In this document: piece after piece, positions 9,001-12,000 of the stretch
How the letters are laid out: each line of letters starts with the position of its first letter
Numbering within the stretch: position 1 is the stretch's first letter
Assembly: GCA_934045905.1 (NCBI GenBank)
Contig: OW203766.1
Span: 22,810,309 to 22,874,308 of the forward strand
Origin: Leuctra nigra
Lineage: Eukaryota; Arthropoda; Insecta; Plecoptera; Leuctridae
Direction of reading: 5' to 3'
Length of the DNA: 64,000 nt
Translations under genes and position numbers: made by a program
The notes under the pieces: model-generated
The model's database searches: none
The model's input: only the letters and a program-made list of their open reading frames with translations
Told to the model about the DNA's origin: nothing

Positions 9001-12000
9001 TTTATCAGTAGTTTTTACATTAATGTTAGAAACTCAACTTCTTTTACCAATGGAACATTTACAGAATGGCTGGCATGTTAATACATGATTGCTCTTGATT
9101 GTTACCTGTACTCTAGCTTCACTGAGCGTCACCCTCCTGGCGAGTTCCTCCCTCACGAAGGCGTCTGGGTAGTGGGTTCTCTCGAACACTCTCTAGAGCT
9201 GTGAGGATTGTTACCTGTACTCTAGCTTCACTGAGCGTCACTCTCCTGGCGAGTTCCTCCCACACGAAGGCGTCTGGGTAGTGGGTTCTCTCGAACACTC
9301 TCTAGAGCTGTGATGATTGTTACCTGTACTCTAGCTTCACTGAGCGTCACCCTCCTGGCGAGTTCCTCCCTCACGAAGGCGTCTGGGTAGTGGGTTCTCT
9401 CGAACACTCTCTAGAGCTGTGATGATTGTTACCTGTACTCTAGCTTCACTGAGCGTCACCCTCCTGGCAAGTTCCTCTCGCACGAAAGCGTCTGGGTAGT
9501 GGGTTCTCTCGAACACTCTCTAGAGCTGTGAGGATTGTTACCTGTACTCTAGCTTCACTGAGCGTCACCCTCCTGGCGAGTTCCTCCCTCACGAAGGCGT
9601 CTGGGTAGTGGGTTCTCTCGAACACTCTCTAGAGCTGTGAGGATTGTTACCTGTACTCTAGCTTCACTGAGCGTCACCCTCCTGGCAAGTTCCTCTCTCA
9701 CGAAGGCGTCTGGGTAGTGGGTTCTCTCGAACACTCTCTCCAGTGCTGTGAGCTGGCCTGTTGTGAATGTGGTGCGGTTGCGACGCGGTTTCTTTCTCTT
9801 TCGCTCGTCGCCTTCCAGATAGTCCTCCTCTAAAACAGTCCACAAAACACAACTTTAAAACACTTTTCACGCAATAATAATTAGTTTTTGATTAACAGTT
9901 ATTTTACAAAGTTTACATTTTGTAAAATTGTTAATTTTTCAAAGAACAGATTTCAAGATTTTATAAATTTTTATTTGAAATACGGGCAATAGACACAAAC
10001 AGACTAAACAGAACCCACACTCATTTCTCCCATTTCCCATTTCTTGTGAAAGTATGCGTTTAACAGCTTTAACGCATTTACTTATACTTTTTTCTTATTC
10101 TTTTTTTTAAATTTGTGAAGTCCCACTTCAGCCTCTATTTGTAAAATGTTAAATGAGACATAAAATGAAATGTCCGACGGAGCTACCGAGAGAGACGCCT
10201 AAATGGCTAAACCGCCGCTAGATCTCGCATGCATGATTGTGATAGTGAAGATGACGAAATTCTGTATGAAATCATATTCCAGGAATTTGTTTATAGCAAG
10301 TTTATTACCGAGGATTGAAATCTGGTATTTTAATGCATTTCAAGCGAAGAAATTGAATTCCAAGATTGGCCAATCTCGAGTGCACATTTGACTGGGAATG
10401 GCAAGCATGTGGGAAAAATACCCTAAATATTCAGAAATCTGAAAATCGGTTAAACGAATTCTCTGACCTTTCTCTAACGCTCTTAGTAAGATTAGTATAG
10501 CCTGACGTTCATCAGATTCTGCTTCAAAATTCATTATCAATTATTATATCTAAATGCGAGTATTATCTGCAGACATTATTGTATTGTAATGTAATTCATT
10601 CAATGTAGATCGAATTTTGAATTTTACGTTGATCGAAAAAAGCTTTTTTGTGGGTAATTATGACGGTGAAATTTAAAAGTTCATGAACCTATCTCTAGTA
10701 CAACGACCATGGTATATTCTATAAAAAATTAAAAAGTACTTTTCATATAATAAGGAAATATGAATAATACATTTTGGGGGTTTTGAGCACAGAAAATAAT
10801 GCATTGAATTTTTATTTATCTTACGCCTCTAAATACAAATGTCTACTTTTGGAAATAATATTCCGTGACTCAGAATCCATCCCCCCACTCGTCAAAACTT
10901 AGAATATTATTATGATGGCACGCGGTCTATAAACAAAACACAGATTTTTTTCATCGTCTCCTTCGATGCCAAGTGTTAAAGAAAGTCGGCATCTCAAAAT
11001 GACAAATTGCCTGCTAATCCCAAAGACATCCAAACAGATTTAGCTCCCACATTCCTAACAAACACAACTCTCCTGCATCCTGCTTTAACAACTTCCCAAA
11101 AAGATTTCACACTAAATTCAATTCATGGCTTGACAATGATTCTATTTACATTTAACGAGCTATTATACACGAATTAAATTCACTCTGATGATTTTTATTA
11201 ATGGATCTCCGATGCTCTTGTAAGTTTATTAGTTGATGATATTGATGATGTGTGAATGTTTGGGTGGCTCAGTTTAGACACGTTTAGTCGGCTCATTAAC
11301 AGATGTCGCTCATTTAGACTTGGAAACCATAAATCACTTGTCGGCTTCAAACGTTGCCTTGCGTGTTTTCATAATTGAGTCAACTTGGAAAATATTAATT
11401 GTGTGTGATTCCTTGAGAAGAGTCCATAAATAAATATTGCTCATAATGGCAAAGATTCTTTAAATATAAGAAAATATGATTTTTGTAATTTTTATAATCT
11501 ACCTGTGCACTCTCTGTAAATTGATGTGTACCTAAGTAAATAGTAATTGCTATAGTTCATAAGCTTAACACACTATACAATTCAAATTGGACAATTTCAA
11601 TTTCTAGCCAATGAAATAGCGTTTTGTGCAAATCTATGAAATCAGAATGATTGAAATTGCCCAATTTGAATTGTATTGTGTGATAAAATATGATTGAATT
11701 GTTATACAAATTATGAAAATTATGCTTTGTTCAATTGTTTTTTTTTTTATGGAAATTAGCTCTTGTCAGCCTTTAAGGTATATTTAATCACCATAATTTT
11801 AATCCCAGATAATATATTTTAAATGTGTATTATTTTAAAATGTATATTTATGGTGATTTGTTATTCACTTCTACACTGCACACTTCTGAACTAAATCGTA
11901 ATCGGATATTTTTTTTCGTCAAAGATAATATGTAAATGAGGGCAGGTAAATACTTTTCAATTGTTTGAATTAATTTAATTCCCACTGATAAATTAAATCG

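What the first reader, a model, noticed from the sequence alone, without database searches (positions are those of the whole stretch)
9097..9829. Homeobox exon array: five extra tandem half-exons, each with a donor and a newly formed in-frame acceptor
Downstream of the intact homeobox exon, the segment encoding homeodomain positions 18-46 plus its donor is repeated five times with a constant 109-bp period. The 2-bp loss and base change shared by all copies breaks read-through but places CTCTAG directly before codon 18. Every copy can therefore be read as an 87-nt, phase-0/phase-0 exon (AGA...CAG) with AG and GT borders. Such an array could give alternative or extended homeodomains, act as decoy splice sites, or be a neutral minisatellite. 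I know of no described case of this for a Prrx gene.
Basis: partly seen in the sequence, partly recalled or inferred. Interest (0 to 1): 0.88.

Follow-up and report, generated by a model that had tools for sequence, protein, structure and literature searches.

The report
Exon-edge repeats in stonefly homeobox gene
In a stonefly, the edge of a homeobox exon with its splice site is repeated in tandem, and similar exon-edge repeats were found at other exons of the same genome; repeats of this kind ("mirages") have been described in lancelets.

Summary
In detail: five 109-bp copies of the 3' half of the Prrx homeobox exon plus its donor follow the intact exon. A second array repeats another exon edge of the gene (acceptor plus 5' half of exon 4, 4280-4623, 114 bp x 3). 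The genome matches Leuctra nigra, a stonefly. Similar arrays span exon edges at 9 of 70 fetched homeobox loci, at two more loci picked from the family listing and, by eye, at 4 of 40 arbitrary 1.5-kb spots; at 0 of 20 kinase loci. So this is a recurrent genome feature, not a Prrx device. It fits lancelet "mirages", minisatellite-like tandem duplications of exon-intron boundaries (passages of PMC3087553, PMC3902484). Matched copies keep GT/AG (51/51, 47/49). In Prrx any decoy site gives a stop. Most likely: tandem duplication and unequal exchange, decoys passed over in splicing. Variants among copies are mostly synonymous, perhaps from exchange with the selected exon. New here: an insect, and several loci. 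RNA was not available.

The parts
16788..16995 (-). Prrx exon 1 coding part (MMSYGG...[11 protein letters not shown]...)
   Evidence: tblastn with termite/cockroach/katydid Prrx; donor read
9651..9829 (-). Prrx exon 2, intact homeobox exon to homeodomain position 46
   Evidence: Pfam homeodomain E 3.1e-14
9097..9752 (-). Array 1: 6 units (1 in the intact exon + 5 decoys), period 109, 3' half of exon 2 + donor GTAACAATC
9542..9628 (-). Decoy copy 1 (87-nt open stretch, codons 18-46)
9433..9519 (-). Decoy copy 2
9324..9410 (-). Decoy copy 3
9215..9301 (-). Decoy copy 4 (one Arg to Trp)
9106..9192 (-). Decoy copy 5
5920..6061 (-). Prrx exon 3 (rest of homeodomain, [10 protein letters not shown]...)
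4218..4361 (-). Prrx exon 4, intact
4280..4623 (-). Array 2: 3 units, period 114, acceptor + 5' half of exon 4; the intact exon holds the last unit, two decoys lie upstream
3030..3176 (-). Prrx exon 5 with the OAR motif ([19 protein letters not shown]); borders approximate
   Evidence: tblastn

Best explanation
The array is a 'mirage': a minisatellite whose unit spans an exon-intron boundary. A tandem duplication with one breakpoint in the exon and one in the intron copied half the exon plus its splice site; unequal exchange then changed the copy number. Because the authentic exon stays whole at the exon-side end of the array, the gene tolerates it as long as splicing uses the authentic site: the upstream-most of six identical donors in exon 2, the downstream-most of three identical acceptors in exon 4. 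The copies are intronic decoys without a function of their own in Prrx. Shown: structure, recurrence at other exon edges of the genome, kept splice sites, stop codons on decoy use. Inferred: origin, neutrality, correct splicing, and exchange between copies and functional exon.
For: Structure. Second array in the same gene. Same build at other homeobox exons, donor-side and acceptor-side, and by eye at 4 of 40 arbitrary spots. In 17 arrays GT is present in 51 of 51 donor-side units and AG in 47 of 49 acceptor-side units that matched the anchor within 25%, authentic sites included; units with larger changes or cut off were not counted. Any decoy use in Prrx gives a stop codon. Periods are not frame-preserving (6 of 15 listed are multiples of 3). 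Gene complete with OAR, and the proteins of four relatives are single-copy over both arrays. Lancelet precedent in which RT-PCR suggested regular splicing (PGBD5 paper).
Against: No RNA or read data were available, so correct splicing and absence of use are not shown. Synonymous excess among copies (23 vs 12, expected 8.9 synonymous, P 6e-7) would also fit coding constraint on the copies. 0 of 20 kinase loci have such an array, and no regular spacing was seen among 132 kinase rows or 38 zf-C4 rows. At the level of listed rows homeobox stretches (4 of 104) exceed these (0 of 170; P 0.02), so the arrays may be less general than the homeobox sample suggests, or the family listings catch them unevenly.
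Confidence: 0.8

Rival explanations
1. The copies are real alternative exons: the new acceptor and the copy donor give an 87-nt phase-0 exon that lengthens the homeodomain.
For: All five copies are open over 87 nt with AG and GT borders; differences from the intact exon are mostly synonymous (5 of 6); the pyrimidine share of the new acceptor is within the range of authentic ones.
Against: New acceptor T content 0.19 vs 0.31-0.62 in 12 acceptors taken as authentic; 22-nt gap between copies. A synonymous bias is also seen in acceptor-side arrays (11 vs 7), where I saw no strong donor in the copies (read by eye). The product would duplicate part of the domain rather than replace it.
Confidence: 0.06
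2. The arrays are selected regulators: decoy sites divert part of the transcripts into stop-containing, decayed forms, or (array 2) into a protein lacking the OAR end.
For: Every decoy donor gives a stop at codon 91 of the exon frame, and each exon-4 decoy acceptor gives a stop after 31 codons; two arrays in one gene.
Against: Similar arrays sit in unrelated homeobox genes and, by eye, at arbitrary spots, which points to a general process rather than to Prrx regulation.
Confidence: 0.1
3. Assembly artefact.
For: Tandem repeats are a usual place for assembly errors; one array (L124) holds an assembly gap of Ns.
Against: HiFi assembly, 32-fold coverage, QV 57.2 (PMC10280035, passages); the arrays are only 0.34 and 0.66 kb long; copies carry their own variants; several independent arrays with different periods.
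Confidence: 0.02

Closest known systems
Mirages of lancelets (globins BflGb6/BflGb9, Adh3, troponin C, PGBD5)
   Same: Minisatellite-like tandem units spanning an exon-intron boundary, at either end of the exon; unit sizes in the same range (BflGb6 150-160 bp, BflGb9 157, PGBD5 60 and 108; Adh3 10-72); many repeats keep splice signals; authentic exon intact (passages of PMC3087553 and PMC3902484)
   Different: Here in an insect; found in a survey at several loci rather than gene by gene; undisturbed splicing and length instability, reported for lancelets, not testable here
Intron gain by tandem genomic duplication (e.g. PMC4974935; seen as search listing and start of abstract)
   Same: Tandem duplication that copies splice signals
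   Different: There the duplication creates a new intron in the coding sequence; here it spans an existing border and the coding sequence is unchanged
Tandemly duplicated, mutually exclusive exons (recalled)
   Same: Tandem copies of coding sequence within a gene
   Different: There each copy is a whole exon with both its own splice sites; here half-exons with one inherited site

Membership tests
mirage (lancelet exon-intron boundary minisatellite) | tandem units that span an exon-intron boundary | tested here: met
   Both Prrx arrays
mirage (lancelet exon-intron boundary minisatellite) | authentic exon remains whole at one end of the array | tested here: met
mirage (lancelet exon-intron boundary minisatellite) | both 5' and 3' exon boundaries can be affected | tested here: met
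   Exon 2 donor side, exon 4 acceptor side
mirage (lancelet exon-intron boundary minisatellite) | many repeats keep splice signals | tested here: met
   6/6 donors, 3/3 acceptors in Prrx, authentic ones included; 51/51 and 47/49 over 17 arrays
mirage (lancelet exon-intron boundary minisatellite) | regular splicing of the mRNA is not disturbed | not testable with these tools
   No RNA data
mirage (lancelet exon-intron boundary minisatellite) | length and somatic instability | not testable with these tools
   Only one haplotype held; no reads
mutually exclusive tandem exons | each copy is a complete exon with inherited acceptor and donor | tested here: not met
   Copies lack codons 1-17 and the original acceptor
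intron gain by tandem duplication | new intron inside the coding sequence | tested here: not met
   The duplicated exon parts align to relatives' proteins without interruption

The most novel reading that the evidence does not exclude
In this stonefly, thousands to tens of thousands of exon edges carry boundary minisatellites, and the decoy halves keep exchanging sequence with the functional exon. Selection on the exon would then purge amino-acid changes from the whole array, and the array would in turn feed variants back into the exon. Splicing in this species would have to discriminate between identical sites by position alone, and the arrays would be standing raw material for new introns.
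Probability: 0.3. Interest if true: 0.85.

Novelty: new member of a known kind. Interest (0 to 1): 0.6.

Why it matters
The boundary minisatellites that I found in print are from lancelets. Finding them in an insect, at several loci, suggests that they are not a lancelet oddity. It also gives natural constructs in which identical donors or acceptors compete and only position differs, a question otherwise put with engineered minigenes. It allows a test of the proposal (in PMC3087553) that such arrays seed new introns. Annotation pipelines may misread such arrays as extra exons.

Tried and rejected
Prrx-specific exon array: rejected as the main reading because the same build recurs elsewhere.

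Assembly artefact: judged unlikely.

Coding role inferred from synonymous excess: not accepted on its own. The first raw count over 14 arrays, which kept partial or shifted copies, gave 40 synonymous and 64 non-synonymous variants against 27.1 and 76.9 expected. With a 12% mismatch filter that dropped such copies it gave 30 and 24 over 15 arrays, and 23 and 12 over 14 arrays without L083, whose intact exon was not located (figures carried over by hand). L055, L073 and L124 were left out of the last two counts. Variants not shared by all other copies: 23 and 19, L083 included (P 5e-5). On donor-side arrays alone the non-synonymous rate is not below the intronic rate (0.012 vs 0.019, P 0.69); on acceptor-side arrays it is (0.014 vs 0.056, P 0.002). 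L034's Leu to Leu change in two steps was counted as one synonymous and one not; a fully synonymous path exists.

Exon status of the four random-spot arrays rests on open frames and splice motifs read by eye. Homology support is weak: zf-AD E 0.01 for L124, Mnd1 E 0.012 for L083, both under the curated cut-offs; none for L094 or L129. Among homeobox cases L055 (4 of 6 acceptors kept) and L073 (unit almost all intronic) are the least certain.

Microhomology at the array edges was looked at and gave no clear rule; for L041 that script picked a neighbouring repeat instead.

A larger family survey was stopped by a busy machine: PF00105 was answered; PF00010, PF00076 and PF00071 were not.

Literature: ten searches of open-licence papers. 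The only boundary-minisatellite reports I recognised in the listings were two lancelet papers, of which I read passages only. The Adh3 paper itself is not held.

Full report
What is there. The window lies at C5:22810309-22874308 of an assembly of 536,196,549 bp in 144 contigs. The sizes of its 13 large contigs match the chromosome table of Leuctra nigra ipLeuNigr2.1, a stonefly (536.3 Mb, 174 scaffolds in the paper; 32-fold HiFi, QV 57.2; passages of PMC10280035); C5 is chromosome 5. The gene is Prrx, on the minus strand: exon 1 near 16995-16788, homeobox exon 9829-9651, exon 3 6061-5920, exon 4 4361-4218, and an OAR exon near 3176-3030, matching proteins of a termite, cockroaches and a katydid. 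The nearest named relatives to the joined first four exons are Cryptotermes secundus (67% identity) and Periplaneta americana (64%).

The finding. Array 1 (9097-9752; 109 bp x 6, 96%) repeats the 3' half of the homeobox exon and 9 nt of intron including the donor. Array 2 (4280-4623; 114 bp x 3, 96%) repeats about 30 nt of intron, the acceptor and the 5' half of exon 4; the intact exon holds the last unit. In the 64-kb window these are the only two arrays with period at least 60 and score at least 300; the 20 kb beside it has none. The proteins of four relatives are single-copy over both regions, and seven unnamed metagenome fragments (P0002-P0008), with 91-96% identity over the aligned part, run on past the exon end for a few to some 25 residues without a copy.

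Not confined to Prrx. A homeodomain search of the same genome listed 126 matches. Of these, 22 are extra copies in four regularly spaced sets: C5 (this one, 109 bp), C12 (161 bp, 12 rows), C8 (111 bp), C7 (133 bp), leaving 104 homeobox stretches. The tool returned 30 of them with about 3.2 kb each (L002-L031, among them the C8 set), and I fetched 40 more with 1.5 kb, besides the C12, C7 and Prrx loci; about 31 were not fetched. In the 70 loci there are 14 arrays at the threshold above. Ten, in 9 of the 70 loci, span or include an exon border on reading (L002 twice, L015, L041, L045, L050, L055, L057, L071, L073); four do not (L014, L028, L039, L059). L055 and L073 are the least sure. L002 again has two arrays in one locus.

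Controls. Of 40 arbitrarily placed 1.5-kb spots, 9 carry such arrays (the two L124 rows are one array broken by an assembly gap). Four of the 9 look like exon-border arrays (L083, L094, L124, L129); the other five have lower GC (22-39%) and were read as noncoding. If roughly 4.5% of 130-bp units spanned a border by chance (my estimate from assumed gene and intron numbers), 4 of 9 has P 4e-4; with 10%, P 0.008. This rests on exon calls by eye with little homology support. Against generality: 0 of 20 kinase loci, which I chose among short frames of 132 rows, and no regular spacing by eye among the 132 kinase rows (124 of 731 candidates scored) or 38 zf-C4 rows. Homeobox loci (9 of 70) and random spots (4 of 40) do not differ significantly from the kinase loci (P 0.20 and 0.29); listed homeobox stretches (4 of 104) exceed the kinase and zf-C4 rows (0 of 170) at P 0.02, not the zf-C4 rows alone (P 0.57). 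Extrapolating 4 of 40 spots suggests thousands to tens of thousands of arrays; this is rough.

Anatomy across arrays. Seven donor-side and ten acceptor-side arrays were checked. GT is present in 51 of 51 donor-side units and AG in 47 of 49 acceptor-side units that matched the anchor, authentic sites included. Of 15 listed periods, 6 are multiples of 3, about what chance would give. In Prrx each decoy donor leads to a stop at codon 91 of the exon frame and each exon-4 decoy acceptor to a stop after 31 codons. The new acceptor before each array-1 copy has 19% T upstream, against 31-62% in 12 acceptors taken as authentic, though its pyrimidine share is within their range; it lies 22 nt from the preceding donor, shorter than any insect intron I know of (recalled).

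Variants among copies. Over 14 arrays, 23 synonymous and 12 non-synonymous variants were found where 8.9 synonymous are expected (P 6e-7). Per-site rates are 0.075 synonymous, 0.013 non-synonymous and 0.042 intronic. Both array types show the synonymous excess (donor-side 12 vs 5, acceptor-side 11 vs 7), but only acceptor-side arrays have fewer non-synonymous than intronic variants. With L083 included it is 30 vs 24; the unfiltered count was 40 vs 64. Since acceptor-side copies appear to have no good donor of their own (by eye), translation of copies is a poor general explanation. Exchange between copies and the selected exon, or repeated re-copying from it, fits better, but is inferred.

Known kind. 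[quoted passage not shown] PMC3902484 (passage) adds PGBD5 (60 and 108 bp) and troponin C. The Prrx arrays meet the four structural features tested; undisturbed splicing and length instability could not be tested. Insect cases did not appear in my ten searches, which cover open-licence papers only.

Verdict. Observation confirmed; interpretation partly supported. The arrays are most likely neutral, unstable boundary minisatellites passed over in splicing. What is new is the host (an insect), their occurrence at several loci, and the synonymous bias among the copies.

Noticed in passing
window 4906-4991: Inverted repeat, arms of 34 nt at 97% with an 18-nt loop, inside the intron between Prrx exons 3 and 4; could be a small transposon remnant.
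   Followed up: no
window 17997-18248 (+): Open frame with a weak THAP-domain match (E 0.0051, under the curated cut-off), about 1 kb upstream of Prrx exon 1; perhaps a transposon piece.
   Followed up: partly
window 58836-61331 (+): An 832-aa open frame without a Pfam match at E 0.01, with an imperfect 42-bp repeat at 60858-60944.
   Followed up: partly
L002 2629-3161: A second array in the same homeobox locus whose units join an exon end and donor to a poly-G run of varying length.
   Followed up: partly
L015 950-1526: The array alternates two unit types, i.e. a higher-order repeat of about 230 bp.
   Followed up: no
L124 1-1500: An assembly gap of Ns lies inside an exon-border array, so such arrays may break contigs.
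   Followed up: no
window 9651-9829: The homeodomain has Thr in RRVTLSE where the termite, Periplaneta and katydid proteins have Asn; all five decoy copies share the Thr. The Blattella record lacks nine residues at this exon end, perhaps an annotation fault.
   Followed up: no
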